Below, piece after piece: positions 16,520 through 64,000 of a stretch of DNA of 64,000 bases. This DNA comes from Vitis vinifera (Eukaryota > Streptophyta > Magnoliopsida > Vitales > Vitaceae). The DNA is taken from assembly GCF_030704535.1 (NCBI RefSeq), contig NC_081818.1:28662001-28726000 (forward strand), read 5' to 3'. The position numbers were made by a program, and so were the translations under genes. Within the stretch, counting starts at the first letter, position 1. The number at the start of each line of letters is the position of its first letter. Under the pieces are notes generated by a model. It did no database searches, was not told the DNA's origin, and saw only the letters and a program-made list of their open reading frames with translations.

Positions 16520-16850
16520 GGTGAAACAGAACAGAGGCCCAAAAAAAAAAAAAAGAGGGAGGGGGCGCTGGGTTCTTCTTCTGTATTTTTAGAGTTGGGG
16601 ACCTGGGGTTAGGAATATTAGCTCAAGACAATGGTGAGAAGAGCAGTCTGGAGACGACCATTGACTTTGTTTGGTACATTTGAAACTACCAGACAATTGC
16701 TCAGAGAGAGAGATGGATTATTGTGACTTTTCCTTGTGGGTGTGTGGCGACGAATTCAATGGTGAGTGTGTGCTTGATGATTACAGACAGATTCTTTGAC
16801 TAAGGATGGATTGTTTAAAGGGTTTAATTAAGGGTTTTTTGACCACAAAC
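16520..16850 (-). promoter_or_regulatory. Upstream region of the BIR-like gene with W-box cores
   Basis: This is the 5' flank of the minus-strand receptor gene. Three TTGAC(C/T) W-box cores lie on the plus strand at 16661-16666, 16796-16801 and 16839-16844, about 140-325 bp upstream of the start codon. W-boxes bind WRKY factors and are frequent in immunity-related promoters. The motif is short, so three in about 330 bp is suggestive, not proof. Confidence 0.4.
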
Positions 16851-37700: not shown

Positions 37701-38833
37701 GTAAGTTAAGAGCCTTTAGACCATCTGAAGTCCACAAAGAAACAATTTCATCATTATATGCCAAATTAAGCAAATAAAATACTAATATCTTAATTGAGGA
37801 GACGAACCTTATTTTTGTGTTTAACTCCATCATTTGTTTAATAAAGTTGTCTCTGCATAGAGAATTTAAAAAAAGAAAAAGAAAGAAAGAAAAAGACCGC
37901 AGACAAACAAACAAAACAAAAGCATTAATAATAAACTAAAATAATTTTTCGTTTGATTTTTAAACATACGATGTTTTTTAAACCGAAGCAAGTAATCAAA
38001 ACGATGATGACTGATCTGTACCGTAAAGCTCCTTCTTCATTCTTTGCATGACCCAAGGATAATTTCCCAGAATAGAGTATGTAAAAACAACATAAGAGTA
38101 TAAAACAAGTAACAGATTAAGATCAAACAGAAGAATCTTAATCAGATGAGAAAACGCCAGAAATAAAACCTATGAATACCTTAAGAATCCCCAAATCAGA
38201 TCCAACCATCGAAACCTCATATTGAATCGCAGCATTTCTTGCCTATAAGTAATTTAAACAGAAATCAATAGGTAATTCAACAAAATATAATGAATTTGTG
38301 AAGAAATCCAATCAATAGCAGGATAAGTTAGAGAGCAACAAACCTCTAGAGTTTGAATTGAAGCTTCGTTCATAGCCAATTCAACTTCGTAGCCTTTGAG
38401 CTCTTGCTCAGCAGCTTCCTTGGAGCGTTTTGACTCTTCGAGCTCTGCATTGGCTATATCCATCTCAGATTGAAGCTCCTGGATTCGCTTCTTCAGGCTC
38501 TCCACTCTCCGTTCTGCATATCTCGCAGCCAGGAAGGGTTTGATGTCAAATATAAAAATAACAACTACTCTCCGTTTTCGGTGGAAAAACACTGCTGTTT
38601 GGTTGCTGAGAAACTGTAAGAAAAATAAAAGAAAATAAAATTTTGATTCCGATTCTTCTCTTGTTTTGTTTCCAAAAAAATTAAAACTCAATGGAGTTTT
38701 TATTTCTTTCTTTTTCCTACATTTTCTCACCAAAAACAACACTACAGAAATTATTTTCACCTCCTTGAGATTTTTCAGCAGCGAAGTCCCGAATTAGGGT
38801 TAGGAGTTGCTTCCGTGAATCAGTTCCCGCCAT
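34738..38833 (-). CDS. Coiled-coil protein of unknown function, eight exons with microexon
   Basis: I assembled this minus-strand gene from splice sites and phase: 38761-38833, 38344-38513, 38180-38242, 38022-38041 (20 nt), 37808-37852 (45 nt), 36427-36494, 35041-35171 and 34738-34947. The sum is 780 nt, a 259-residue protein starting MAGTDSRKQLLTLIRDFAAE. Residues 25-80 are strongly heptad-like (RRVESLKKRIQELQSEMDIA, AELEESKRSKEAAEQELKGY). The 20-nt microexon encodes NEEGALR with the following exon, joining SDLGILK to DNFIKQMMELNTKIR. The C-terminal half is again helix-rich (LRTLEDKLAHIISQ, TALQLLQLQQELINIEKKVT). I recognise a plant-conserved protein but not its function. The last exon's acceptor (GTCAAG before TCC TTT) is weak but is the one that keeps phase. 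Upstream, GGGCCA/GCCCA motifs near 38900-38990 look like site II elements. Exons 38022-38041 and 37808-37852 are duplicated near the right window edge. Confidence 0.8.
37045..38066 (+). repeat. Segmental duplication, copy 1 (partner 62995-64000)
   Basis: From about 37045 the text matches, in direct orientation and over about 1 kb, the sequence from about 62995 to the right edge. Shared landmarks include TTCTGGACCCACTG, GACTAATAGCAGAGGACTTC, GCAACTTGCAAGTGCATGCT and GAGCCTTTAGACCATCTGAA. This copy lies within the coiled-coil gene (introns and two exons), so it is most likely the source. By eye identity is near 90 percent with small indels. Confidence 0.9.
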
Positions 38834-40550: not shown

Positions 40551-41384
40551 ATACAATTCTCTCTCCCCATTTCTATTATATATACCCATCGCTCCCATTC
40601 ATTTCTTCTCGCAGTAGTATTTATAAAGGACAAAAACGTTTTTTGGAAGCAAGCAAACGGTAGAAAGTAGAAAAGCAATGGCTGGGAGGGAGATGGTTGG
40701 GAGGAAGAAGAGGCAATGGCTCTGTACGGTCCATTTTCATGCATGCCGACGCTGCAGATTTGTGGTTGATGGCCTTCGGGTTCCTCGGGGCTCTGGGTGA
40801 TGGGTTTTCCATGCCAGTGGTTTTGTATGTGACCAGCGAGATTATGAATAATATCGGAAGTTCCTCAACTTCTGCTGCTGATGCCTTCGTTGATAAAATC
40901 AACGAGGTCCTTTGTTTTTCTCTCTCTTTATCTATTTATGTATACACAGGGGTGTATGTATAACTAAGCTAACCGGGATTTGGGGTTTTGGGTGATATAA
41001 TGCAGTGACTTTGTTGTACATTGCTTGTGGGTCATGGGTTGCTTGTTTCCTAGGTGGGTTTTACTTTGATTTTGTTTTTACTTTTTTGTGTTTTTTCCAA
41101 GGTTGAGTCAGAGATTGAATATTGGACTTTGCTCGTTTTGTTTTGATTTTCAGAGGGTTATTGCTGGTCAAGAACAGCAGAGAGACAAACCACAAGGATG
41201 AGGGCTAGATATCTGAAAGCAGTGCTGAGGCAGGACGTGGGCTATTTCGATTCGCATGTGACCAGCACAGCAGAGGTCATCACCAGCATCTCCAACGATA
41301 CTCTCGTGATTCAAGATGTTCTTAGCGAAGGTTGGTTCTTTCAATGCTGCTGTGTCTCACATGATTCATGATTTTGTTGGCTGC

Positions 41385-41992
41385 AAAATTGTAATGTTGG
41401 CTGATGTTTACCAGGAGGGAGAACACGGCCAATCCAACGAAACAAAGCGAATATGTTCTGGTATTTTTCTTGATTTCTGGTATTTTTCTTGATTTCCTCA
41501 TGCTCAGGCGAGAAAAAAACCGATATCATCGATCCCATTGCGAAAGCGTACACCGGCTGAACCGCACCAAACAAGATTGCACTCAAACATCCCATGCTAG
41601 CTTGCTTTCACTCAGGAACGTTCATTGCCGGCAGTCTCCGGATGATGGCACTGGAAAGTCTTGCTCCCCCGTAGTGGCTATTTCTCCGGCGGGCCGGCTT
41701 GGTGCGTTTGAGTTGGCGGAACTCGAGCGGCTGACCACAGATAGACTGCGGATGCTGGTGCTGTGGAGATCCAGGCTGGTTGAGATCGCTGCGGTTGAGG
41801 AAATCGCGAGAGAGGAGGCCTCCGATGACTTCTCAGTTTGCTGGAGGCGGACGAGGGAAGTGTAGAGTCCGTCGTCGTTCTGGATGAGGTCGTGGTGAGA
41901 GCCGGTCTCCATGATCTGGCCATTCTGGACGACAGCGATGATGTCCGCGTTGCGGATGGTGGAGAGGCGGTGGGCGATGATGATGGTGGTGC
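41385..41992 (-). pseudogene. Inverted ABCB fragment: NBD1 end, linker, TMD2 start
   Basis: On the minus strand, from 41992 down to about 41622, the reading is [20 protein letters not shown] through [20 protein letters not shown] and a Ser-rich linker. It continues after a frame slip with WKQASMGCLSAILFGAVQPV and the start of TMD2 to about 41385, where homology stops at CAATTTTGCAG. It matches copy A's segments 43543-43862 plus 46011-46300, but in opposite orientation and without the solo LTR found there. The H-loop (IAHRLS) is intact here, unlike the plus-strand copy (TAHCFS). It therefore derives from another or earlier ABCB copy. Confidence 0.9.
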
Positions 41993-42566
41993 GGCCATTC
42001 TGTGCCAACCCGGTTATCATTGTTGTCCAACAAACAAGATCCCTTCTACCCATTTTATCAAACACCCTCATCGCTTCGTCCATCTTCCCACACTCGGCAT
42101 ACAAATTCAGAACCGCTGCCCCAACAAAAACATCATCCCCATACCCTTGATCAATCGCTTCGCGCCAAGTCTCCTCGCCACTCCTCAAATCCAACGACCT
42201 CGTACACGCCTTCAGCACAACAGTGTAAGTTGAGCTATCGGGTCTAATCCCTTCTGACGCCATCCGATGATAAAGACTCAAAGCTTCAAACATCGCACCT
42301 CTTCGTGAATATGCGATGATCATAGCACTCCAAGCATCTACACCACATTGAGGCGATTTGTCAAACACTTGGCGCGCAGATTCGATGTGGCCCAGTCGAG
42401 CGTATAGTATTAGCTTCGCATTGGAGTTTCCATGACCAAAGATCCCAGTCAAGATCGCGAGAGCATGGATTTTAGCAATAGTTGGTTTGTCTTTCGAGGC
42501 TACTAGAAGAGTTTTCAGACTTTTTGAACTAACTAACCTCATTGCCGACACCGAGGAAACGACCAA
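41622..42566 (-). pseudogene. Chimeric open frame: PPR protein N-terminus fused to ABCB NBD1 end
   Basis: An uninterrupted minus-strand frame of about 314 codons. The first 193 or so residues are a PLS-type pentatricopeptide repeat protein: [96 protein letters not shown]. This resembles, from memory, At3g25060-type organellar RNA-binding PPR proteins. The frame then passes without a stop into [19 protein letters not shown] of ABCB NBD1 and its linker. The junction is near 41992-41998, where both parents would read close to TGGCC(G/A), a microhomology join. The first in-frame ATG is at 42542. The remaining 400 or so residues expected of such a PPR protein are absent, and NBD Walker motifs are absent. 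No promoter is evident. Most likely a rearrangement relic, though the frame is open. Confidence 0.8.
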
Positions 42567-43862
42567 GGGCGGGAAACCACAGCAATATCTCTGTTGCAGA
42601 GGTTTTATGACCCACTTGGTGGGGAGATTCTTCTTGATGGGGTGGCCATTGATAAGTTACAGCTCAAGTGGGTGAGGTCACAGATGGGCCTAGTGAGCCA
42701 AGAACCAGCACTTTTTGCAACCACCATTAAAGAGAACATACTTTTCGGAAAAGAGGACGCTATCATGGAGGAGGTGGTTGCTGCTGCCAAAGCTTCAAAT
42801 GCTCAAAATTTCATTTGTCAGTTGCCTCAGGGGTATGATACCCAGGTTCGTTCTACTTGTCGCGTCCTGCACCTCTCCTCTTTCGTTTTCTGTCCCTTTC
42901 TTTCCTTTCTTTTTAGCTACTAACTTTGGTTTCGCACATTCTTGGAAATCACTTTTTGCATACTATATCATATGACGAATACGCTTTAAAATATATCATA
43001 TTAAGAATGTGTTTTATAGCGTTGTAAGAATTTTTATTTTTTATTTTTAATAATTAAATGATAAAAAAAATTTAGAAAACGTATTCTAAAATTAGACTAA
43101 CTTATACACGTATAATATTCTATAATTTTATTATTGATTAAGATAATCAATGTGAATATTTTTCATGATAAAACTACTCGCATAAGTTAGTTCATAATTA
43201 ACTAATAATTAATTTAAAATTATATTATGTAGATTTCATAGAACGACAAGTGATTCATTCATGCTTGTCCTTAGAATTTAAGTTCAGAAAAATATTAAAA
43301 ATGTTTTTCAAAATTATTATTATTATTTAAAATTTAAAGTAAAGTAATAAATAAAAGATGATAAGCACGTGTGCAGGTAGGGAAGAGAGGAGTTCAGATG
43401 TTAGGAGCACAGAAGCAAAGAATCGCCATTGCATCCGCCATCATCAAAGCCCCACAAATCCTCTTCCTCGATGAGGCAACCAACGCGTTAGACTTCGAGT
43501 TGGAGCGAGTTGTCCAAGAAGCCTTAGACAAAGCGGTCGTTGGCCGCACCACCATCATCACCGCCCACTGCTTCTCCACCATCCACAACGCGGACATCAT
43601 CGTTGTCGTCCAGAATGGCTAGATCATGGAGACCGGCTCTCATGACGACCTCATCCAAAATGACGACGGACTCTACACGTCCCTCGTCTGCCTCCAACAA
43701 ACTGAGAAGTCATTAAAGGCCTCATCTCTCGCAATTTCCTCAATCGCAACAATCTCAACCAACCTAGATCTCCACAACACCAGCATCCACAGTCTATCTC
43801 TGGTCAGTCGCTTGAGTTCTGCCAACTCAACCGCACCAAGCCAGCCCACCAAAGAAATAGCC

Positions 43863-46010
43863 TGTAATGACCGGGTATTTTATGACACGTTAGCATTTTT
43901 AGTTTGAAAAGTCTTATTTTGTGTGATGGTTGAAAAGTCAAAAAGAAAAGTGTTTGGAGAACACGTGTCAATTTCGGATCGGTGAATTTCATTTTATTGT
44001 GTCGGTCAAATAGACGAGTTGAAATTTTATGTCATGTCAGCCTTAGGGTAGAAAATTTCTTAAGATTTTAGAAATTGAAAATTTTCGGAAACGAAAAACG
44101 AAAACGAAAAAAAAAATGAATTAATTAAAAATTAATTAGAATTAATAAAAAAAATTAAATTAAACTTATGAATAATAAAATTGAGAAAAATTAGTTTTAG
44201 ATTGGTGTTAATAAATAAATTTGTATGTTAAAAAAAAATGAATTGGAAATCAAATAAAACAATTAGAACAAACAAAAGAAAATAAAATAAAAGAAATAAA
44301 ATAAAAATATTCATTGGGCTTTGAATATTGGCCGTTTAAGGTAATGGGTTATAAAAGAAAAAAAGATATGAAATGGATTGGGCTTAGATATGGGCTGGTG
44401 GTAGGAAGCCTTTGTTGTTAAAAAAAAAAGGAGGAATTTTTGAAAAGGGCAGAACGCGGGGAGAAGAAAGAAGCAGCGGCTGTGGAATTTTGGGGTTCTC
44501 GCCGGATCTTTGACCGGCCGTTTGGATGGCCAAACGATCTCTGTTTCAGCCCAAATTCGGAGGAAGTGCTCTATTCGACTAGAGGAACAAGTCTACGATG
44601 GCTGATTTCATTTTTAACGGGTCAATTCTCAGATTTGTGATAGGGGAAAACTAACCCTAAAACTCAAATTTAATGTATTTTTCATTGAAAAAAATTATAA
44701 ATCTGATAATTATGAGTTAAGTAGGTAATTGTGATGTTGTGTGAATTTTCTAGAATGATTTGGGATTTTTTTCTGGATTTTTTTTGTAATTTCCGGAATT
44801 CTTTGTAATTGATAAATAATTATTTTAAGTGTTAAAAATTGTTAGAAATGTAGGAAAATTCCGGAATTAGGGCAAGATTTCAAATCTAGTGATTTATGAA
44901 TTTTTGAAAATTGATTGGAATATTTGTGGTAATTTTATTGTGAAAAATTAGTTATTTTCAAATATTAGGAATTATTAGAATTATTGAAAAAATTTGAAAT
45001 TGTGATATAAATTCAAGTATATTGATGTGTGAATTTCCGAAAATTCGTTGGTATATTTTCGGGAATTTTAATGTGAAAATTTTATTTTATTGGGTTATTG
45101 AAAATGTTGGAATTGTTGAAATTATTGAGGAATTTTGGAGTTCGTGGCATTCATTTGCATTATGGTTGTATGAAGAAAAAAAAAATTGTGAAAAGTGTAT
45201 GAAATGAAAAAAAATAAAATAGTGATGAAAAGTGAAAGCCCGTGTGAGGCGAACTAAGAAGGGAGAGAGATCCCTAGGGTGAAAGACCCAAAAGTTTACC
45301 CCGGAAAGACTCCGAATGGGGAGTATATTTGGGTGCGGACACGTATCCTTCGGTGAAAGCCCGAGAACGATAGAGCATTGTATGACCGTGTGTCACACGT
45401 TCATATGTATTCATTTAATGATTGGATGTTGTGGGATTGAGTATAATGTTATATGTTAAATTGTGTGACTTGATTTATATTGGTAAACTGTTGTGTTTGG
45501 GTTATTGAAATATAGAAATTCCCCATTAACCCTTTGGGTGTTAGGCACCCTACTGAGCAATGTGGAAATGCTCACCCTTTTTTTTTATATATATTTTTAG
45601 ATGCAGATATCACTCCTGAGGATCCACAAGTGGGACAGGGAGGACTTCAGGATGCCCCTGGAGCGGTTTAGTGGAATGTGTTTTATTTATTTATTTTTAT
45701 TGTGTTTGTGGCATTGAGACCTTGTAATAAGTGAATTATGGATAATGAAATAAGACCTTAATTTGATTAAGGGGATTTTTATGAAATTTTATTTTGGAAT
45801 GCAATGATGTTTATTAAATCTTAATGTGTTTGAGTAAGGTTTGAAATATTTTTAGTTGGTGAGAACCTAATGGGACTTATATGTGGAAAAAAAAAAATTC
45901 AGAGTGTTTTAGTTGACTGCCAACGTGGAATAGGAGAAACCCTTAGGGTCAAACCTTTGACCTGGGGTCACGGGCCAAATTTTGGGTCGCCCGGAATTTG
46001 GGTCGTGACA
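43863..46010. mobile_element. Solo LTR, Ty3/gypsy-like (fossil)
   Basis: A 2148-bp insertion bounded by TG...CA: it starts TGTAATGACC and ends GGTCGTGACA, near-inverted ends. The 5-bp target duplication TAGCC is exact on both sides (43858-43862 and 46011-46015). It sits inside the NBD1-TMD2 linker exon of ABCB copy A; removing it in thought restores continuity of the linker. There is no internal region and no second LTR, so it is a solo LTR left by LTR-LTR recombination. Length and ends fit large LTRs of Ty3/gypsy elements of the Tekay/Del kind; lineage is inferred. It is absent from the inverted copy of the same segment. Confidence 0.85.
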
Positions 46011-46434
46011 TAGCCACTACGGCAAAGCAAGACTTTCCGGTGCCATCGTTCCGGAGACTGCCGGCAATGAACCTTCCTGAGTGGAAGCAAGCTAGCATGG
46101 GATGTTTGAGTGCAATCTTGTTTGGTGCGATTCAACCGGTGTACACATTTGCAATGGGATCGATGATATCGGTTTTTTTCTTGCCTGAACATGATGAAAT
46201 CAAGAAGAAAAAAAAAACAGAACATATTCGCTTCGTTTCGTTGGATTGGCTGTGTTCTCTCTCTTGGTAAATATCAGCCAACATTACAATTTTGCAACCA
46301 TGGGAGAGCACTTGACCAAGCAAGTGAAGGACATGATGTTTTCAAAGATACTGACTTTTGAAGTAGGGTGGTTTGACCAAAACCAGAACTCCACTGGTGC
46401 CATTTGCTCCTGGCTCGCCAAAGATGCCAATGTG

Positions 46435-47071
46435 GTAAGTATATTATTTTAAATTTATAAAAAATAATTATTAAAAAACTCAAAACTGACGTCACTTTTT
46501 CCTTTTTGTTTTGAGCTAAATTATTAAAATTGTGAATGATAAACTTGAACAGATGTCGGATTAAGAAAAATAATTAAGTATATTACATTACCATCCATCT
46601 TGTTTTAGTCATCCCTCTATACTTAAGGAAAGATGTCTCTTGTGAGACTTTAAGTAAACTGAAAAAGAATAGCAAGTTGTCGCCGTAACCAGGGTACTAA
46701 GTTTGGTTCAAAGGCATAGCCACCTTCATTGTTTTAGTGCTTAAAAAAATTAGTAAATTTATGGCTGGGAATGTCCACGATAAAGTCATCTCTAATGTTA
46801 TGTCTTTACTTTGCAATGAACTAGTGGTTTCCCTAGATGGTGACTTGTTTTTGGCTTAAACAATTGGAACACGTTAATCACTAATAAATTAATTAAGATT
46901 GATTGATCACTGATTGTGGTTAATGATTACAAGAGTTTATGACGGCCATGGGCAGACTCAATCAAGGTTAAGGGATGGGTGACCCTATGGGCCTAGAGAC
47001 ATGACCAACAACATTAATAACATTGATTGCATGCACATCACGTTAAGTTTATTTGTGATTTTTTTCAGTAG
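46435..47071 (+). other. Intron of ABCB copy A (TMD2)
   Basis: A GTAAGT donor follows 46434 and the acceptor is CAGTAG at 47066-47071. The first 290 bp match the sequence after 55615, the corresponding intron of the terminal ABCB copy. Confidence 0.75.
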
Positions 47072-48349
47072 GTGAGATCATTGGTGGGTGATCGAATGGC
47101 ACTTGTTGTCCAAACCTTCTCAGTTTTGATCATCGCTTGTGCAATGGGTCTGATCATTGCGTGGAGACTTGTTGTGGTGATGATAGCGGTTCAACCGCTC
47201 ATTATAGTCTACTACTACACCAGACGGGTGCTTCTCAAAAGCATGTCCGCTAAGGCTATCAAGGCCCAAGAAGAAAGCAACAAGCTCGCAGCCGAAGCGG
47301 TATCTAATCTCTGAACCATCACAATCTTTTCATCCCAAGCCCGAATCCTGAGAATGTTTGAGGTCACATAGGAAGGTCCCCTACGGGAAAGTATCCGTCA
47401 ATCATGGTTCGTTGGGATCGGACTCGGGACCTCCTAAAGCCTCGTGACATTTACTTGGGCTCTAGATTTTTGGTATGGGGGCAAGTTAATCTCATAAGGC
47501 TACATTTCATCAAAAGCATTGTTTGAGACATTGATGATCTTAATAGGCACCGATCGTGTCATTGCCGATGTCGGAAGCATGACCAATGATATCACCAAAT
47601 GGTCAGACGCGGTTGATTCGGTTTTCAAAGTCCTTAACTGCTACACACGAATAGAACCCAAAGATCCGGATGGTCACCAACCCGAAAAAATAATAGGTCA
47701 AGTTGAAATTCCTGAGGTGGACTTTGCTTACCCAACCAGACTTGATGTACTTGTCTTTAAAAGCTTCTCAATCAATAGAGAAGCTGGAAAATCAAACGGC
47801 ACTTGTAGGATAGAGAGGGTTCGACAAATCAACTATCATTGGCTTAGTAGAAAGATTCAACGGCCCACTCCAAGGAATCGTCAATATCGACAGCAAAAAT
47901 ATAAGGTCCTATCACCTTAGAGTACTACGGAAACACATCGTACTAGTGAGTCAAGAGCCCACACTATTTGCAGGCACCATAAGAGAAAACATTGACTACA
48001 ACGTATCTCATAAAATATTCTAAAAAATTTCAAGTATTAAAAGTTTTATAAACGTGTTCTAAAATTATTATGAAACATACTAACTTATACGCATATAATA
48101 TTCTATAATTTTATTATTGATTAAGAAAATAAATGTGAACATTTTTTCAAGGTTCATGGCAAAACCACTCATTATAGCATAAGTTAATTCATAATTAACC
48201 AATAATTAATTTAAAATTATATTATGTAGATTTCATGAAACCCTTAGAATTCAAGTTTAGAAAAACATTAAAAATGTTTTTCAAAATTACTATTATTATT
48301 TGAAATCTAAAGTAAAGTAATAAATAAAAGATGATAAGCACGTGTGCAG

Positions 48350-48414
48350 GTAAGGGAGAGAGGAGTTCAGATGTCAAGAGCGCAGAAGCAGAGAATCACA
48401 ATTGCACGCACATT
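48350..48414 (+). pseudogene. Truncated NBD1 second-half exon of array unit 1
   Basis: After an intact CGTGTGCAG acceptor (ending at 48349) the exon reads AGGAGTTCAGATGTCAAGAG CGCAGAAGCAGAGAATC and is cut at about 48408-48414 (ATTGCACGCA). Unrelated sequence follows to about 48490, where a second partial copy of the same intron begins. This marks a deletion or rearrangement breakpoint private to unit 1. Confidence 0.75.
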
Positions 48415-48489
48415 GCATGTGTGTAGTAATAAGCCTTGGTTTGTTTTTGGGTTGGATGCGTTCAAGTCACACCGCTCACGTACAAAGTT

Positions 48490-48934
48490 GCACATTTTTT
48501 AAGTATTAAAAGTTTTTTTATTTAATTGTTTTTTAGCACTTGAATGATAAAAAAATTTCAAGTATTAAAAGTTTTAGAAACGTGTTCTAAAATTATTATG
48601 AAACAGGCTAACTTATACATGTATAATATTCTATAATTTTATTATTGATTAAGAAAATAATTGTGAATATTGTTTCAAGGTTCATGGCAAAAACACTCAT
48701 TATAGTATAAGTTAGTTCATAATTAACCAATTATTAATTTAAAATTATATTATGTAGATTTCATGAAACATCAAGTAATTTATTCATGTCACCCTTTAGA
48801 ATTCAAGTTCAGAAAAACATTAAAAATATTTTTCAAAATTAATATTTTTATTTGAAATATAAACAAAAGTAATAAATAAAAGATGATAAGCACATCTGCA
48901 CATGGGGAAGAGAGGAGTTCACATGTCAGGAGGG
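48490..48934 (+). repeat. Extra partial copy of the NBD1 intron and exon start
   Basis: The blocks TCAAGTATTAAAAGTTTTA, AATATTCTATAATTTTATTA, CATGGCAAAA and GATGATAAGCACATCTGCAC repeat the intron at 48023-48349. The exon start GAGGAGTTCACATGTCAG then runs into a solo LTR at 48935. The acceptor AG has changed to AC here (TGCAC), as in array units 2 and 3. Confidence 0.8.
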
Positions 48935-50731
48935 TGATTGGAGCCAAAATATGTGCTCTGATGGCACATATTCGATATGATTTGTGCACCAAAGGACATT
49001 CAAATCACCCAACTTGACATAAATCAATGCTAAGGCCTTAGCCATGAGTTTAATCTATACTTTGGAGATTTATCTCAAGTTCAAGGGAAGAAAATTGTGC
49101 AAATTGAATGACTTTAGATTTTGAAAGATCAAGAAATGGCTAAATGAGGAAATAAGTGAGTCAAGACTCAATGAACGTAAGGAAAGGAAAAACAAGGATA
49201 TCATGAGGTTGGAGGATGATAAACGACCATTATGGAGTAAGAAAGAAGGCAAGAAAGCATGGGAAATGAGACATGAAGCAAGATTTAGCTGCATGGAAAT
49301 TTAGAACTCAAAAATCTAATGGCATTATATACTCTGATTTTGAGGATAAATTTGGAGCACTTTCTGGAATCCATTATATATATACACTATATATCGTTTC
49401 GAAGCTCGGGAAGTCAGGAGTCCAACTCTTCAAACGGTTTGCAAATCGGAGCTGAAATGAAGAAGTTATGACCATTTGAAGACAACTGCACCAAGTTGGA
49501 GGGTCATTTCGAAATGATTTTGAAATTCAACTTATGAATTCGAAATCCACTTCGAAATGACACCAATTTCGAATTCACCCACTGCCACTTTGATGTTCCG
49601 CCTCCTCTACCTCGGGAATTGCATCTAAAGCACTCCATCCGCCCTAGGTGGACCCCACACGACTAGAAATCACAATTTTATTATTTTTTAATCATTTTTA
49701 GGAAATTATTTTGTAAGAAGTGGCCAATGAGAGTGTGCCACATGTTAGGTAATTGAGGATATTATATAAACTCTCTCAATTCTAGGTTTTAGGCATCTTG
49801 GATTTTTTTTCTGGAAAGTTTGACATTGAAAGTGGAAGAAGACGAGAACTTTGGTTTGTTTTCTTTTTCTTCTTTATTGAATATATTGTTTTTAGTTTCT
49901 TTTGATTCAAATTATGGATTTTTACCCTATTATGGATTGTGAATGTGACATCACCCCCATGAGAGGCTGAGAGCCAACTTGGGGCTTGAAGCATGAAAAC
50001 CTAAGGGTTAGGAAACCTATAAGGACAATGGGTAAATTATTTTAACAATGAGATTAATTATTGGTTGGGTGACAATTTATCATTTTTTTTATCCTATCCT
50101 TGTGAGTTCGTTTAGGGAATGATACGGTAGGTTATTACTTGATACTAGTGATTCTTGGTAATTCTTGATCATTAGTTATCCTCGTCTTACCTACCGTTAT
50201 TTGCCCCTAAACAAAGCTATAAGGAGTAGGAAGGGTTAAAAAGTCAAATCTTAAATTGATAATCAATCTCATTCATTTGATGGTTTTAGGAATCTGTTTG
50301 AAAAATGAAAAATTAGGTTTCAGATGCAATTTTGAGTTATAGAACCCAACTTGATCGCGAGTGGCCAAGGATCCCAAAACCCTAAGATCATATTACTTAA
50401 AATACCCTTGTTTTCTATAATTTCTATACCCTAGGTTGGATTGTGGAAAACCCCAAACTTGAATCAATTGAATTTAAAATCAATATTCATTTTCTCTTAT
50501 TAATCCAATTTCTTTTACTTAGTTTCACATTATTCACATATTGTTTTTCACTTAAGGATTTAAACAAAAACAATTCATTTATTCTAGTATTGACAATTTT
50601 CATAAGCCAGTCCTTGAGAACGATACCCGGAATACTACAAAAGTCGTAGTGACTCTTTCTCTAGTTTTTCTTGACCAGAGTTACTACGTAAAAAGGCTAA
50701 GTATTTTGGTACAATAGAGAAATTTCGGTCA
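48935..50731. mobile_element. Solo LTR, Ty3/gypsy-like (fossil)
   Basis: A 1797-bp insertion starting TGATTGGAGCC and ending AATTTCGGTCA, with an exact 5-bp target duplication GAGGG at 48930-48934 and 50732-50736. It splits the NBD1-derived exon of array unit 1. Internal features fit an LTR: a non-coding AT-rich body, a TATATAAACTCTCTC promoter-like stretch near 49753, and a 3' part with GATACCCGGAATACTAC. No internal domain or partner LTR is seen. Ty3/gypsy assignment (possibly Tat/Ogre-like) is tentative. The other array units lack it. Confidence 0.75.
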
Positions 50732-52162
50732 GAGGGTAGAAGTAGAAAATCGCCATTGCACCCGCCATCATCAAAGCCCCACAAATTCTCCTCCTCAACG
50801 AGGCAACCAACGCGTTAAACTCCGAGTGGAGACTTGTTGTGGTGATGATAGATGTTCAACCGCTCATTATAGTCTGCTACTACACCAGACGGGTGCTTCT
50901 CAAAAGCATGTCCGCTAAGGCTAGCAAGACCTAAGAAGAAAGCAACAAGCTCGCAACCGAAGCTGTATCTAATCTCTGAACCATCACAGTCTTTTCATCC
51001 CAAGCCCAAATCCTGAAAATATTTAAAGTTGCACAGGAAGGTCCCCTACGGGAAAGTATCCGTCAATCATGGTTCTTTGGGATCGGACTCGGGATCTCCC
51101 AAAGCCTCATGACATTTACTTGGGCTCTATATTTTTGGTATGGGGGCAAGTTAATCTCACATGGCTACATTTCATCAAAAACATTGTTTGAGACATTAAT
51201 GATCTTAATAGGCACCGATCGTGTCATTGCCGATGTTGGAAGCATGACCAGTGATATCACCAAAGGGTTAGACGCGGTTGATTCGGTTTTCAAAGTCCTT
51301 GACCGCTACACACGAATAAAACCCAAAGATCCGGATGGTCACCAGCCCGAAAAAATAATAGGTTAAGTTGAAATTAGTGATGTGGACTTCGCTTACCCAG
51401 CCAGACCTGATGTACTTGTCTTTAAAAGCTTCTCAATCAATATAGAAGCTGCAGGAAAATCAACGGCACTTGTAGAATAGAGTGGGCCCGACAAATCAAC
51501 TGTCATTGGTTTAGTAGAAAGATTCTACAACCCACTCCAAGGAATCGTCAATATCGACGGCAAAGATATAAGGTCCTATCAACTTAGAGTACTACGGAAA
51601 CACATCGCACTAGTGAGTCAAGAGCCCACACTGTTTACAAGCACCATAAGAGAAAGCATTGACTACGACGTATCTAATAAAATATTCTAAAAAATTTCAA
51701 GTATTAACAGTTTTATAAATGTGTTCTAAAATTATTATGAAACATACTAACTTATACACATATAATATTCTATAATTTTATTATTGATTAAGAAAATCAA
51801 TGTAAACATTTTTTCAAGGTTCATGGCAAAACCACTCATTATAGCATAAGTTAGTTCATAATTAACACATAATTAATTTAAAATTATATTATGTAGATTT
51901 CATGAAACGTCGAGTGATTTATTCATGTCCACCTTTAGAATTCAAGTTAAAAAAAACATTAAAAATATTTTTCATATTATTATTTTTATTTGAAATCTAA
52001 ACTAAAGTAATAAATAAAATATGATAAGCACATTTGCACATGGGGGGGAGAGAAGTTCAGATGTCAAGAGGGTAGAAGTAGAGAATCGCCATTGCACCCG
52101 CCATCATCAAAGCCCCACAAATCCTCCTCCTCGACGAGGCAACCGACACGTTAGACTCCGAG
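50732..52162 (+). pseudogene. ABCB array unit 2 with the preceding NBD1 joint
   Basis: 50732-50826 is the end of the NBD1-derived exon ([22 protein letters not shown]), joined directly to TMD2 at 50827. The TMD2-NBD2 part reads [14 protein letters not shown], then [20 protein letters not shown] and [20 protein letters not shown], ending near 51690. Defects: TGA in VSNL*TIT near 50977, TAG before the Walker A remnant near 51478, and Walker A Asp in place of the last Gly (GPDKST). In the following NBD1 intron copy the acceptor AG is lost (TTTGCACATG near 52035). The unit ends at the joint at 52163. Confidence 0.88.
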
Positions 52163-53498
52163 TGGAGACTTGTGGTGATGATAGCAGTTCAACCGCTCAT
52201 TATAGTCTGCTACTACACCAGACGGGTACTTTTCAAAAGCATGTCGGCTAAGGCTACCAAGGCCCAAGAAGAAAGCAGCAAACTCGCAGCCGAATCAGTA
52301 TCTAATCTCTGAACCATCACAGTTTTTTCATCCCAAGCCCGAATCCTAAAAATGTTTGAGGTCGCATAGGAAGGTCCCCTACGGTGAAGTATCCGTTAAT
52401 CATGGTTTGCTGGGATCAGACTTGGGACCAACCAAAGCCTCGTGACATTTACTTAGGTTCTGGATTTTTGGTATGGGGGCAAGTTAATCTCACAAGGCTA
52501 CATTTAATCAAAAGCATTGTTTGAGACATTGATGATCTTAATAGGCACCGGTCGTGTCATTGCCGATGCCGGAAGCATGACCAGTGATATCACCAAAGGG
52601 TCAGACGCGGTTGATTCGGTTTTCAAAGTCCTTGACCGCTACACACGAATAGAACCCAAAGATCCGGATGGTCACCAGCCCGAAAAAAATAATAGGTCAA
52701 GTTGAAATTCATGATGTGGACTTCGCTTACCCAGCCAAACTTGATGTACTTGTCTTTAAAAGTTTCTCAATCAATATAGAAGTTGCAGGAAAATCAACGG
52801 CACTTGTAGAGTAGAGTGGGTCCGACAAATCAACTGTCATTGGTTTAGTAGAAAGATTTTACAACCCACTCCAAGGAATCGTCAATATCGACGACAAAGA
52901 TATAAGGTCCTATCACCTTAGAGTACTACGGAAACACATCGCACTAGTGAGTCAAGAGCCCACACTGTTTGCAAACACCATAAGAGAAAACATTGACTAC
53001 AACGTATCTCATAAAATATTTTAAAAATTTTCAAGTATTAAAAGTTTTATAAATGTTTTCTAAAATTATTATGAAACATACTAACTTATACACGTATAAT
53101 ATTCTATAATTTTATTATTGATTAAGAAAATCAATGTGAACATTTTTTTCAAAGTTCATGGCAAAACCACTCATTATAGTATAAGTTAGTTTATAATTAA
53201 CCAATAATTAATTTAAAATTATATTATGTAGATTTCATGAAACATGAAGTGATTTATTCATGTCCACCTTTAGAATTCAAGTTCAGAAAAACATTAAAAA
53301 TATTTTTCAAAATTAATATTTTTATTTGAAATATAAACTAAAGTAATAAATAAAATATGATAAGCACATCTGCACGTGGGGGAGAGAGAAGTTCAGATGT
53401 CAAGATGGTAGAAATAGAGAATCATCATTGCACCCGCCATCATCAAAGCCCCACAAATCTTCCTCCTCGACGAGGCAACCAATGCGTTAGACTCCGAG
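52163..53498 (+). pseudogene. ABCB array unit 3
   Basis: Exactly 1336 bp from joint to joint. It carries TMD2 (with a 3-base deletion at CTTGTGGTGATG), the cytoplasmic segment [20 protein letters not shown], and NBD2 first half to about 53022. Then come the NBD1 intron and NBD1 second half up to the next joint. It shares with units 1 and 2 the TGA in VSNL*TIT (near 52310). It shares with unit 2 the lost acceptor (CTGCACGTGG near 53372) and the degenerate signature GAAGTAGAGA/GAAATAGAGA. Walker A reads GSDKST. Confidence 0.88.
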
Positions 53499-55615
53499 TG
53501 GAGACTTGTTGTGGTGATGATAGCGGTTCAACCGCTCATTATAGTCTACTACTACACCAAACGGGTGCTTCTCAAAAGCATGTCCGCTAAGGCTATCAAG
53601 GCCCAAGAAAAAAGCAGCAAGCTCGCAGTCGAAGCGGTATCTAATCTCCGAACCATCACAGTCTTTTAATCCCAAGCCCGAATCCTAAATATGTTTAAGG
53701 TGGCATAGGCCTTATGGGAAAGTATTCGTCAATCATGGTTTGTTGGGATTGGACTCGGGACCTCCCAAAGCCTCGTGACATTTACTTAGGCTTTGGATTT
53801 TTGGTATGGGGGCAAGTTAATCTCTTAAGGCTACATTTCATCAAAAGCATTGTTTGAGATATTGATGATCTTAATAGGCACCGGTCGTGTCATTACCGAT
53901 GTCGGAAGCATGACCAGTGATATCACCAAATGGTCAGACATGGTTGATTCGGTTTTCAAAGTCCTTGACTGCTACACACGAATAGAACCCAAAGATCCGG
54001 ATGGTCACCAACCCAAAAAAATAATAGGTCAAGTTGAAATTCGTGATGTGGACTTCGCTTACCCAGCCAAACCTGATGTACTTGTTTTTAAAAGCTTCTC
54101 AATCAATATAGAAGCTGGAAAATTAACGGCACTTGTAAGACAGAGTGGGTCCGACAAATCAACTATCATTGGTTTAGTAGAAAAATTCTACGACCCACTC
54201 CAAGAAAGCGTCTATATCGACGGCAAAAATATAAGGTCCTATCACCTTAGAGTACTACGGAAACACATCGCACTAGTGAGTCAAGAGCCCACATTGTTCG
54301 CAGGCACCATAAGAGAAAACATTGCCTATGACGTATCTCATAAAATATTCTAAAAATTTTCAAGTATTAAAAGTTTTATAAACGTATTCTAAAATTATTA
54401 TGAAACAGACTAACTTATACACATATAATATTCTATAATTTTATTATTGATTAAGAAAATCAATGTGAACATTTTTTCAAGGTTCATGGTAAAACCACTC
54501 ATTATATCATAAGTTAATTCATAATTAACCAATAATTAATTTAAAATTATATTATGTAGATTTTATGAAACGTTAAGTGATTCATTCATGTTCACCCTTA
54601 GAATTCAAGTTTAGAAAAACATTAAAAATGTCTTTCAAAATTATTATTATTATTATTATTGGAAATCTAAAGTAATGTAATAAATAAAATATGATAAGCA
54701 CGTGTGCAGGTGAGGAAGTTCAGATGTCGGGAGTGCAGAAGCAAAGAATCTCCATTGCACCCGCCATCATCAAAGCCCCACAAATCCTCCTCCTCGACGA
54801 GGCAACCAACGCGTTAGACTCCGAGTCGGAGCGAGTTGTCCAAGAAGCCCTAGACAAAGCGGTTGTTGGTCGCACTAGCATCATCATCCCACCGCCTCTC
54901 CACCATCTATAACGCGAACATCATCGTTGTCGTCCAAAATGGCCAGATCATGGAGACCGACTCTAAAGACGACCTCATCCAGAACGACGACAGACTCTAC
55001 ACTTAACTTGTTTGCCTCCAACAAACTGAGAAGTCATCGGAGGCCTCATCTTTCAAGATTTCCTCAAACGCAGCGATCTCAACCAGTTTGGATCTCCAAA
55101 GCACCAGTATTTGTAGTCTATCCGTGGTCAGCCACTCGAGTTTCGCCAACTCAAACACACCAAGCCGACTTGCGGGAGAAATAGCCACTATGACGAAGCA
55201 AGACTTTCCGGTGTCGTCGTTCTGGAGATTGCTGGCAATGAACCTTCCTGAGTGGAAACAAGCTAGCATGGGATGTTTGAGTGCAATCTTGTTTGGTATG
55301 GTTCAGCCGGTGTACGCATTCGTAATGGGATCGATGATATCGGTTTATTTCTTGCCTGAGCATGACGAAATCAGTAAAAAAAAAAAGAACATATACGCTT
55401 TGTTTCATTGCATTGGTTGTGTTCTCCTTCCTAGTAAATATCAACCAACATTACAATTTTGCAGCCATGGGAAAACACTTGACCAAGCAGGTGGAGAAGA
55501 TGATGTTTTCAAAGATACTGACTTTTGAAGTAGGGTGGTTTGACAAAAACCAGAACTGCATTGGTGCCATTTGCTCTTGGCTCGCCAAAGATGCCAATGT
55601 GGTAAGTTCATTATT
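53499..55615 (+). pseudogene. ABCB array unit 4 continuing into NBD1 end, linker and TMD2 start
   Basis: The least damaged TMD2-NBD2 half: the VSNL(R)TIT stop of units 1-3 is a CGA arginine here, and 53850-54353 is an open stretch of 167 codons ([39 protein letters not shown]). Walker A is still SGSDKST. The NBD1 intron keeps a normal acceptor (GTGTGCAG to 54709). The next exon has a 7-base deletion at its start, signature SGVQKQ, Walker B LLLDEA, then the linker, WKQASMGCLSAILFGMVQPV and TMD2 start to 55615 (GTAAGT donor follows). A private stop interrupts VF*SQAR near 53667. Intron sequence after 55615 matches copy A until about 55918, where a retroelement begins; nothing further of this gene is in the window. 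Confidence 0.88.
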
Positions 55616-55920
55616 TTAAATTTATAAAAAATAATTATTAAAAAACTCAAGATTGACGTCACTTTTTCCTTTTTGTTTTGAGCTAAATTATTAAAACTGC
55701 GAACAATAAACTTGAACAGATGTCGGACATGCAATGATTGAAGAAAATGTAACCCACATCTAGACCTCTTAATTTAAGAAAAATAATTAAGTATATTATA
55801 TTACCATCCATCTTGTTTTAGTCATCCGTCTATGCTTAAGGAAATGTGTCTCTTGTTGAGACTTTAAGTAAACTAAAAAAGAATAGCAAGTTGTCGCCGT
55901 ATCCAAGATACTAAGTTTTA

Positions 55921-57157: not shown

Positions 57158-59725
57158 AATGTCCTCCCTTTGCCACGCAAGACTCCAGCTAACCTGCCCA
57201 CATGAGAAAAAAAAAAAAAAAAAAAAAAGAGCAAAACAAAACTCCAACATTCTTTTTCTTCATTTTCTCCATTGAGCACTGAACCAAACAAAAAAAATTC
57301 ATCTCCTATTCTCCTTATCAAAAACCCAACTTCGTGAAACCCAATGTTATTTGGATGCATTGTTTTTTAAAATTATTATTATTTATTTTGATTTTGTAAA
57401 AACATTGTAAATTAAATTTATATAATATTAATTAAATTTTAAACATAATTCAATATATAATATTAATTAAATTTAATAAAATTCTTATTGAAAATAAAAT
57501 TAGTTTTATATTTAAACAATAAATAGTTTTTAGTAAAATAGGAATGGTAATATTATATTACAATCACAAATTTATATAGGGATAATTGTGTTTCGACCTA
57601 GTTGGGCCCAAAAATTAAGCTTTGGTCTATATAAGTTCACTATTTAAACCCAAGACCTAGAGAAAGTGTGAAAATTGAAAAGAATGATAAGGATTTTTTA
57701 TCTTTCCAAAAATGACATTTATTGACTATGAAAAAAAAAAAAAGAGTAGAAAAACATTAATTTAAATTATATTTCTTTTGCAAACCTCAATAAAATTTAG
57801 TGATTTGGAAAAAAATAAACTATTTTCCAAAAAAATAAAAATAAATTATTATTATTTAAAAATCAAACATCTTATATATTAAAAAAATTATGTATATAAA
57901 AAATAACTGAAAATATGTCAAATTTATTTTTTTTTAAATGATATATTTTTATAATATATTTTTTAAAAAAATTAGTTTTCTAAAAATAATAAATTTTCAG
58001 AATAATTATTAAAAAAAATAAGATAAAAAAGTTTTCAAACATTATGATAAAAAATAGTTTTGAAGGGTATATTGATCTTTTCATATTTTATATCCTCTCC
58101 ATTAATTATGCAACTTTCATGAGCCAAATCTTAATTTTTTAGTATAGTTGGGTCCAAAAGACAATTGTCCCATTTATATATATATATTTTTTTACAAAAG
58201 TTATACCATTTTACCCTTTATTATGGAAATGTGGATATAATTGATTTTTATTAAAAAAGAATAACAGTGTTTTAAAAATAATAATGATTAATAATATTAT
58301 TTAAAATGAATTTATTATACTATTTTCCTCTTTATTATAGAAATATGGATATTGACATCTTTGTAAAATAATAATTGATTTTTTTTATTAAAAATTAATA
58401 ATAATATTTTAAAAATAAGAATGATTAATAGTATTATTTAATATAAATAAATTCAACAAAAAATATTGTTTGATTTCAAGTCTATTTTTCTAGTTAAAGA
58501 AATTATAATGATATAACTATGTTCATAAATAAATAATAGAATAAATCAATTTTTATCCAAAAATTTATGGTATTAATTGGTTAACTATTTGATTTTAAAA
58601 TTATTTTTTACTATTATTTAGACTTGTTAATAAATCAACCGTATTAAATTTTATTTAATTTGAAGCTTATATTTTTAGTAAACAAAATTTAAAAAAAAAA
58701 GATATGATTTTATATAGAAAATAAACAATAAAGTTATTAATTTTTTTTCATAGATTTCTTATATTAATTTGATCACTATTTGAGTCTAAGGGTCACAAAA
58801 GAAGACCCAAGCCTTGAGATAGGTAGAACCCAACTTTAATTAAGGTAGTACCTAAGGTCCCTTAAGATAGTACCTAAGGTAAATTAAGGTAATACCTGAA
58901 GGATATTAAGGTAGTACCTAAGGGCTATTAAGGTCTCAAATAAGCAAAGGTGAACCCCTGACCACACAAAAAAAATCACATAATGGCATGGTCTAAGGGT
59001 CATAAAGGAAGGTCTAATGATTGGGAAATGTAGACCCTAACTTTAACTAAGGTAGTACCTAAAGTCCCTTAAGGTAGTACCTAAGGTACATTAAGGTAGT
59101 ATCTAAGGGCTATTAAGGGTAAAATGTTATATCCATATTTCCATAATAAAGGGTAAAATGGTATAACTTTTATAAAAAAAATCAGGTCCCTTAAGGCAGT
59201 ACCTAAAGTACATTAAAGTAGTATCTAAGAGCTATTAAGGGTAAAATGTTATATCCATATTTCCATAATAAAGGGTAAAATGGTATAACTTTTATAAAAT
59301 ATATATATATATATATAAATTTGTGATTGCAATATAATATTATCATTCCTATTTTACTAAAAACTATTTATTGTTTAAATACAAAACTAATTTTATTTTC
59401 AATAAGAATTTTATTATATTTAATTAATATTATATATTTAATTATGTTTAAAATTTAATTAATATTATATAAATTTAATTTACAATGTTTTTACAAAATC
59501 AAAATAAATAATAATAATTTTTAAAAACAATGCATCCAAATAACGTTGGCTTTCACGAAGTTGGTTTCTGATAGGGAGAATAGGAGATGGAGAATTTTTT
59601 TTTGTTTGATTCAGTGCTCAATGGAGAAAATGAAGAAAAAAGAACGTTGGAGTTTTGTTTTACCTTTTTTTTTTTCTCATGTGGGCAGGTTAGCTGAAGT
59701 CTTGCGTGGGAAAGGGAGGACATTT
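57158..59725. mobile_element. 2.57-kb element with about 425-bp inverted arms
   Basis: The left arm (57158-57582) and right arm (59312-59725) are inverted copies. AATGTCCTCCCTTTGCCAC, GCTAACCTGCCCACATGAGA, GAGCACTGAA, AATGCATTGTTTTT and a long AT-rich tract all reappear reverse-complemented in the right order. The interior has no coding sequence but contains a second inverted pair: GTTATACCATTTTACCCTTT at about 58199 against its complement near 59273, also duplicated at 59152. A GGTAGTACCTAAGG minisatellite lies at 58837-59245. Long arms suggest a Mutator-like or foldback-type non-autonomous DNA transposon. I could not identify a target duplication. Confidence 0.8.
58837..59300. repeat. GGTAGTACCTAAGG minisatellite within the inverted-arm element
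   Basis: A unit of about 20-24 bp close to ATTAAGGTAGTACCTAAGG is repeated about four times at 58840-58930, three to four times at 59040-59120 and three times at 59186-59240. The blocks are separated by a larger duplication: TCTAAGGGTCA(C/T)AAA(A/G)GAA near 58786 and 58992. A 65-bp block, AAGGGTAAAATG...ATGGTATAACTTTTAT, is also duplicated at 59115-59175 and 59235-59297. Confidence 0.85.
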
Positions 59726-62994: not shown

Positions 62995-64000
62995 ACCTTC
63001 TTTTTGTTCCTCACTCTGTATCTAGCCATACGAAAAGACCACTTCAATCTTTCTCTTCATTTTTCTGGACCCACTGACTGTCTGTTTTCAGGCCAATCTA
63101 ATTTTTATCGAGTATTGGTTAGCCCCTTGGTTTTTCTACTTTCCAGTATCTTGACTAATAGCAGAGGACTTCATGACAGCATATTTATCATTTAAGGGGA
63201 GTTTACTCATTCACTTCTATCAGCTGTCTTTGATGCCTTGATGCTTCAAAATCACATCTCTAAGTCATGTTTTGTAAGCATTGATTTGTGATCACATTCT
63301 CAGCTCTTGCAACTTGCAAGTGCATGCTAAAGAAACCAGTACAAGTTTCTTGGCAATCATATATTCAAGAATCCAATTTTACTGTTTAATTACTATTATA
63401 CAGGGGGCTTGGCCAGACAAAAGTAGTCTTTCCTCTTGTGTCAAAACTGAAAACTATCAAAAGGTAGGAAAGCCATTAAAACTCAAGTCATTTTTGCAAT
63501 TCTTAGGAGGTTGTCCTCAGAAACAGAACCTTCAAGGTCACTACACACAGAACTATAAATTTAAACAGTAAAGATTATCTGAGCTATCAAAATCTACTTA
63601 CTTGATTTTCAGATGGTTTAGAACAACTAAGTAAGACTGTGTTCTGCAGTTTGAATCATAAGTTAAGAGCCTTTAGACCATCTGAAGTCCACAAAGAAAC
63701 AATTTCATCATTATATGTAAAATACTAGTATCTTAATTAGGGAGACTAACCTTATTTTAGTGTTTAACACCATCATTTGTTTAATAAAGTTGTCTCTGCA
63801 TAGAGAATTTAAAAAAACAAAACGTATAGAGTATGTAAAACAGAACATAAGCATTAATAATAAAATAAAATAATTTTCATAACATATGATGTTTTTTAAA
63901 CAGAAGCAAATAATCAAAATGATGATGACTGATCTGAACCGTAAAGCTCCTTCTTCATTCTTTGCATGACCCAAGGATGATTGCCCCAGCCACGGAATAG
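62995..64000 (+). repeat. Segmental duplication, copy 2 (partner 37045-38066)
   Basis: Direct-orientation copy of the coiled-coil gene segment about 26 kb away. Differences are scattered substitutions and indels; for example copy 1 has extra sequence around 37760-37780 and 37865-37910. The match begins abruptly near 62995 and continues to the window edge, so the full duplication is longer. The partner's 3' exons (36427-36494 and beyond) have no counterpart at the expected place near 62430. Confidence 0.9.
63751..63959 (-). pseudogene. Duplicated exons of the coiled-coil gene (partial copy)
   Basis: Two exons of the eight-exon coiled-coil gene are present with intact splice sites. The 20-nt microexon (63940-63959, NEEGALR) is identical to its partner, and the 45-nt exon (63751-63795) reads DNFIKQMMVLNTKIR, with Val for Glu relative to the source gene. 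The downstream exons are missing inside the window, and upstream exons, if any, lie beyond the right edge. It is either a truncated duplicate or part of a rearranged second gene; the missing 3' exons favour a pseudogene. Confidence 0.65.

What the first reader, a model, noticed from the sequence alone, without database searches (positions are those of the whole stretch)
47162..54825. Tandem amplification of a chimeric half-transporter module (1336-bp period)
Units 2 and 3 are both exactly 1336 bp, measured from the TGGAGACTTG landmark. Each unit fuses ABCB TMD2 and the front half of NBD2 to the NBD1 intron and the back half of NBD1, then loops back to mid-TMD2. Two events are implied. The first is a recombination joining an NBD2 front half to an NBD1 intron, plausibly between neighbouring tandem ABCB genes. 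The second is a microhomology joint (shared GGAG) that created the repeat unit, followed by unequal crossing-over. A satellite-like array born from part of a transporter gene is unusual.
Basis: partly seen in the sequence, partly recalled or inferred. Interest (0 to 1): 0.8.

Follow-up and report, generated by a model that had tools for sequence, protein, structure and literature searches.

The report
Broken transporter gene's small tandem array
A dead plant ABC-transporter gene has had one half repeated head to tail, shortened by a deletion and copied a few more times, leaving a small decayed array that looks like a fossil of ordinary gene-cluster rearrangement.

Summary
The landmark lies at 47162, 50827, 52163 and 53499; two intervals are exactly 1336 bp. 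Each unit runs from mid-TMD2 through the front of NBD2 into an NBD1 intron and the NBD1 back half of an ABCB-type transporter. Units are 91.3-93.3% identical, which argues against simple assembly duplication. No unit is free of stops.

J1 (NBD2 front | NBD1 intron, 4 copies) runs backwards in gene order, so it makes a tandem of half-transporters of about 2.8 kb. J2 (NBD1 | TMD2, 3 copies) keeps native order and is best read as an internal deletion of about 1.5 kb that shortened the unit to 1336 bp. Its overlap is GT, not GGAG. Unequal exchange between the repeated intron/NBD1 segments probably added units. The odd first interval holds a partial copy and a 1797-bp solo-LTR-like insert with 5-bp target-site copies.

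'Satellite-like' overstates it: three full units plus partial copies in a pseudogene cluster, with Drosophila Sdic as a precedent. Species, expression, copy-number variation and intact paralogues could not be tested.

The parts
42570..42851 (+). NBD1 front exon of the undeleted copy, ending ...GYDTQ, then intron
   Evidence: Pfam ABC_tran on 42537-42920; translation
42852..43389 (+). NBD1 intron of the undeleted copy (G43); its 3' part from about 43094 matches the unit tails
   Evidence: self-BLAST 43094-43842 vs 54407-55166, 84.8%; alignment; exact limits inferred from translation
43390..43862 (+). NBD1 back half and linker of the undeleted copy
   Evidence: tblastn and translation
43863..46010 (.). 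2148-bp insert, solo-LTR-like: TG...CA ends, target-site copies TAGCC at 43858-43862 and 46011-46015
   Evidence: no second copy among the self-BLAST pairs listed
46016..46435 (+). TMD2 first exon(s) of the undeleted copy, direct copy at 55178 on
   Evidence: 46007-46560 vs 55178-55727, 90.3%
47072..48017 (+). unit 1 head: TMD2 with its native upstream exon start (landmark 47162) to NBD2 front, ending at J1
48018..48407 (+). unit 1 tail: NBD1 intron and start of NBD1 back, broken at 48407
48496..48934 (+). partial copy U1b: NBD1 intron with extra, native-looking upstream intron and no J1; NBD1 back begins; ends in target-site copy GAGGG 48930-48934
   Evidence: 48550-48935 vs 53023-53409, 92.8%
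48935..50731 (.). 1797-bp solo-LTR-like insert, TG...CA, second target copy GAGGG at 50732-50736
50737..50826 (+). rest of NBD1 back of U1b, ending at joint J2
   Evidence: self-BLAST places that start at 50728
50827..52162 (+). unit 2 (U2), 1336 bp; J1 near 51684; J2 at its 3' end
52163..53498 (+). unit 3 (U3), 1336 bp; J1 near 53018; J2 at its 3' end
53499..54824 (+). unit 4 (U4), 1326 bp; J1 near 54347; no J2 at its 3' end
54825..55917 (+). undeleted continuation: NBD1 end, linker, TMD2 start; similarity to the first copy stops about 55917
41378..41997 (-). inverted copy of NBD1 end, linker and TMD2 start next to PPR sequence

Best explanation
A decayed ABCB-type (full-size) transporter locus of a plant. 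Step 1 (inferred from structure): joint J1 put the front of NBD2 against the middle of an NBD1 intron, giving tandem half-transporter segments of about 2.8 kb; either half of one gene was duplicated, or two neighbouring genes were fused by a deletion. Step 2 (inferred): joint J2 deleted about 1.5 kb from NBD1 to mid-TMD2 in one segment, shortening it to 1336 bp. Step 3 (inferred): unequal crossing-over between the direct copies of the intron/NBD1-back stretch, now 1336 bp apart, added units carrying both joints. Step 4: two solo-LTR-like inserts and point decay. It probably has no protein function.
For: J1 is the same in 4 of 4 units and J2 the same in 3 of 3 places, so each arose once and was copied. 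Undeleted copies flank the array: 43390-47162 upstream, 54825-55917 downstream. J2 joins NBD1 to TMD2 in native order and in frame. The three J2-bearing tails (U1b, U2, U3) share 7 sites against U1, U4 and G43 at 51934-52073 and group at 96% bootstrap. Tree support shifts along the unit: U1+U2|U3+U4 sites lie 5', U1+U4|U2+U3 sites lie 3' (8 vs 21 sites, Mann-Whitney p = 0.0015), as expected if units were exchanged. U1b, lacking J1, has upstream sequence resembling the native intron (anchored score 26; 0 of 200 shuffles and 0 of 297 random window pieces reach it). Decay: 12 stop positions upstream of J1, each unit with several; variable sites 34 of 202, 25 of 202, 25 of 201 at codon positions 1, 2, 3, so no sign of purifying selection; 72 of 129 singleton changes are C>T or G>A against 20 reverse.
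Against: In the same tail stretch two sites (52020, 52053) group U2, U3 and U4 against U1, U1b and G43, and four more sites follow other patterns, so the J2 clade is not clean. Of the 7 'J1-type' sites, 6 lie upstream of the joint in non-homologous sequence and were dropped, so its rank test is void and only one site (51807) groups the J1 tails. The native-intron match of U1b is weaker in other tests: 4 of 100 shuffles reach it for 48408-48548, 0 of 100 for 48460-48549, and 48408-48490 has no match (41 of 100). The origin of 48408-48495 is unknown. Recurrent C>T change could mimic some sharing.
Confidence: 0.7

Rival explanations
1. One reading: recombination made the NBD2/NBD1 chimera, and the second joint looped the sequence back to TMD2 and thereby created the repeat.
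For: Both joints are real and all J2 copies are identical.
Against: J2 joins NBD1 to TMD2 in native order (undeleted copies at 43390-47162 and 54825-55917), so alone it makes no repeat. One J2 (50826/50827) follows U1b, which lacks J1.
Confidence: 0.15
2. Assembly artefact: a repeat wrongly multiplied or joined.
For: No reads or second assembly were available.
Against: Units differ by 6.7-8.7% with private indels, and one interval alone carries an insert with matching target-site copies. A false join of paralogous haplotypes is not fully excluded.
Confidence: 0.05
3. A working tandem of half-transporter genes or exons used in splicing.
For: J2 keeps the reading frame; unit 4 has a 174-residue open stretch matching ABC_tran.
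Against: Several stops per unit; the last glycine of Walker A reads as aspartate in 4 of 4 units (GSDKST); the intron 3' end reads TGCAC in place of TGCAG in U1b, U2 and U3; codon positions vary alike.
Confidence: 0.03
4. A regulatory locus: the inverted copy 41676-41997 pairs with 43541-43862 in a read-through RNA, giving small RNAs against intact ABCB relatives.
For: 322-nt arms, 89% complementary, 1543 nt apart.
Against: No expression data; inverted fragments are common in decayed clusters (general knowledge); no Rfam family found in the window.
Confidence: 0.05

Closest known systems
Sdic cluster of Drosophila melanogaster (passages of PMC3395120 read)
   Same: Tandem duplication, then one or more deletions fusing parts of two genes, then amplification to about four tandem copies between the parental genes, with retroelement pieces in the cluster.
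   Different: Sdic is expressed and testis-specific, repeats are nearly identical, and the parents are two unrelated genes; here the parts are two halves of one transporter family and the copies are decayed.
Partial gene duplicates with internal or tandem amplification, e.g. fish AFGP and AFPIII (passages of PMC3449122 read)
   Same: Fragments of a gene, including introns, become a tandem repeat.
   Different: Those gave new functional proteins; no function is indicated here.
Plant full-size ABCB transporters
   Same: TMD and NBD parts match by sequence.
   Different: Order, completeness and catalytic motifs are broken.
Satellite DNA
   Same: Head-to-tail units with exchange between them.
   Different: Three full units only, 7-9% divergent, inside a gene cluster.

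Membership tests
ABCB full-size transporter gene fragments (homology) | Sequence match to ABC membrane and ATPase domains | tested here: met
   3 of 10 window pieces given to Pfam matched ABC_tran or ABC_membrane above the cut-off; 5 gave none, 1 PPR, 1 only sub-cut-off coiled coils. PDB matches to plant ABCB1/19.
Functional ABCB transporter | Open frame and intact Walker A | tested here: not met
   12 stop positions upstream of J1 over four units; GSDKST in 4 of 4.
Partial tandem gene duplication | Head-to-tail copies of part of a gene with shared breakpoints and parental sequence nearby | tested here: met
   J1 in 4 copies, J2 in 3, undeleted flanking copies.
Unequal crossing-over array | Exchange between units visible as conflicting trees along the unit | tested here: met
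   8 vs 21 informative sites ordered along the unit, p = 0.0015; parallel C>T change could contribute.
Satellite DNA | High copy number in long arrays | tested here: not met
   Three full units plus partial copies in this window; rest of the genome not available.
Sdic-like new chimeric gene | Expression and a new open frame | not testable with these tools
   No transcripts held; frames broken.
Solo LTR (two inserts) | TG...CA ends and 5-bp target-site duplication, with full elements of the same family elsewhere | tested here: inconclusive
   Ends and target copies met; family copies elsewhere not testable.

The most novel reading that the evidence does not exclude
The array is a seed of a gene-derived satellite still changing in copy number among individuals by exchange in the intron stretch, and together with the inverted fragment at 41378-41997 it feeds small RNAs that silence intact ABCB relatives.
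Probability: 0.06. Interest if true: 0.6.

Novelty: new member of a known kind. Interest (0 to 1): 0.3.

Why it matters
It is a compact worked example in which the order of events (backward joint, deletion, exchange, insertion, decay) can be read from one locus, and it shows how a deletion inside one copy can set the period of a new tandem repeat. It would matter more if copy number varies today or if the locus makes small RNAs.

Tried and rejected
Rejected: GGAG microhomology (out of register by one base). Rejected: the Mann-Whitney test on tail sites, because 6 of its 7 'J1' sites are upstream of the joint. Corrected: the deletion length printed (1503) used an end six bases too far; 3662 (same call) minus 2153 gives 1509. 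Discarded: stops after column 625, where dropped columns broke the frame; redid that part in the frame of U4. Inconclusive: context of C>T change (CHG 14 of 224 vs CHH 45 of 1336, p = 0.055; CG 13 of 304 vs CHH, p = 0.49), so methylation is not shown. In one search, 2 of 8 tblastn queries (TMD2mid_U2 and the inverted linker piece) were taken in a shifted frame; they still matched their copies but were not used for domain labels. The PDB search of the NBD1 back half favours the first NBD in 5 of 5 plant chains, but the second in many animal chains, so the label rests mainly on continuity with the linker. Tandem Repeats Finder lists no such array because its longest period is 500. Rfam: no match in the window.

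Paper searches (9 of 10 used). Searches listed nothing; from the other listings only PMC3395120 and PMC3449122 were opened, passages only. No listed title described this array, but the library is partial and the species is unknown, so nothing is claimed about absence from print.

Full report
Observation. The landmark TGGAGACTTG lies at 47162, 50827, 52163 and 53499, with intervals 3665, 1336 and 1336. Units 1-4 align over 1345 columns at 91.28-93.26% pairwise identity; K2P distances are 0.071-0.094. Unit 1 is cut at 48407, U2 and U3 are 1336 bp, U4 is 1326 bp to the point where it continues as unbroken NBD1. U2 and U3 have equal length although they differ by 4 indel events.

What the parts are. 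The head of each unit is TMD2 and the front of NBD2: plant ABCB1 and ABCB19 chains score it higher on the second than the first NBD in the three alignments shown, and Pfam finds ABC_membrane in a U2 piece and ABC_tran in a U4 piece. The window's own NBD1 front exon (42570-42851) is 44-48% identical to the four heads. Animal ABCB1 chains give the first NBD as best stretch, so the label leans on the plant chains and the adjoining TMD2. The tail is an NBD1 intron and NBD1 back half: it matches 43094-43505, and after U4 it runs into the linker and TMD2 start, as does the inverted copy, which matches ABCB19 550-652.

Two joints. J1 sits just after CATAAAATATT at 48009, 51676 (first base A in U2), 53010 and 54339 and joins NBD2 to the middle of the NBD1 intron, backwards in gene order. 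J2 reads CTCCGAG|TGGAGAC at 50827, 52163 and 53499. Beside the unbroken NBD1 (CTCCGAG|TCGGAG) and unbroken TMD2 (ATTGCG|TGGAGA), the only overlap is GT. J2 keeps gene order and frame. In the undeleted copy the same points are 3662 bp apart; less the 2148-bp insert and one 5-bp target copy that is about 1509 bp. By arithmetic on the coordinates, the undeleted period from the intron breakpoint near 43065 to J1 at 48017, less 2153, is about 2.8 kb.

Hence the proposed order: J1 gave tandem half-transporters; J2 shortened one; exchange in the intron/NBD1-back stretch then added 1336-bp units. Supporting this, tails next to J2 (U1b, U2, U3) share 7 sites against U1, U4 and G43 in 51934-52073, with 6 other sites there in different patterns, two of which group U2, U3 and U4. 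The tail tree gives 96% for U1b+U2+U3 and 84% for U1b+U3; its alignment includes some non-homologous columns upstream of J1, which would pull against that grouping. Informative sites along the four units shift from U1+U2|U3+U4 (8) to U1+U4|U2+U3 (21), p = 0.0015, with 3 sites of the third split. U1b lacks J1, and its upstream bases resemble the native intron: 0 of 200 shuffles and 0 of 297 random pieces reach its anchored score, though in unanchored tests 4 of 100, 0 of 100 and 41 of 100 shuffles reach the score for three sub-stretches.

The long first interval. It holds the broken unit 1 tail, a stretch 48408-48495 of unknown origin, U1b, and a 1797-bp insert (48935-50731) with TG...CA ends and GAGGG on both sides. 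A second insert, 43863-46010, has TAGCC on both sides. Both look like solo LTRs; no internal region or second copy was seen in the listed self-BLAST pairs.

Decay. Upstream of J1 there are 12 stop positions over the four units (11 before column 625, 1); 0 of 12 is in all four, so that part may have been free of stops when J1 arose. Yet all four read GSDKST in Walker A, where the plant chains have GSGKS or GCGKS, so the parent NBD2 was probably already damaged. Variable sites by codon position are 34 of 202, 25 of 202 and 25 of 201. Of 129 singleton changes 72 are C>T or G>A and 20 the reverse; the context test is inconclusive. In U1b, U2 and U3 the intron's 3' end reads TGCAC where G43, U1 and U4 read TGCAG.

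Comparison. Drosophila Sdic (passages) was modelled as duplication, deletion-fusion and tandem amplification; partial duplicates in arrays are reviewed in PMC3449122 (passages). The present case is of that kind. Species could not be identified; 'plant' follows from the gene content (plant ABCB, PPR) and is otherwise recalled. No genome is held.

Verdict.

Noticed in passing
41622-42656 (-): One 344-residue open frame joins PPR repeats in frame to ABCB NBD1 end and linker sequence: a possible PPR-transporter fusion or chance read-through of two fragments.
   Followed up: partly
41676-41997 and 43541-43862: Inverted ABCB fragments, 322 nt, 89% complementary, 1543 nt apart: possible hairpin RNA.
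   Followed up: no
37040-38068 and 62996-63986: Direct repeat of about 1 kb, 87-88% identical, flanking the whole ABCB cluster 26 kb apart; may mark an older block duplication.
   Followed up: partly
57158-57578 and 59312-59724: Inverted repeat, 92% identical, about 2.6 kb end to end, enclosing 22-bp tandem repeats: probably a fold-back or MITE-like element.
   Followed up: no
14678-16588 (-): Intact 636-residue open frame that looks like a leucine-rich-repeat receptor kinase (label from recall; frame).
   Followed up: no
31941-33287 (+): Open frames that look like an inositol polyphosphate 5-phosphatase (label from recall; frames).
   Followed up: no
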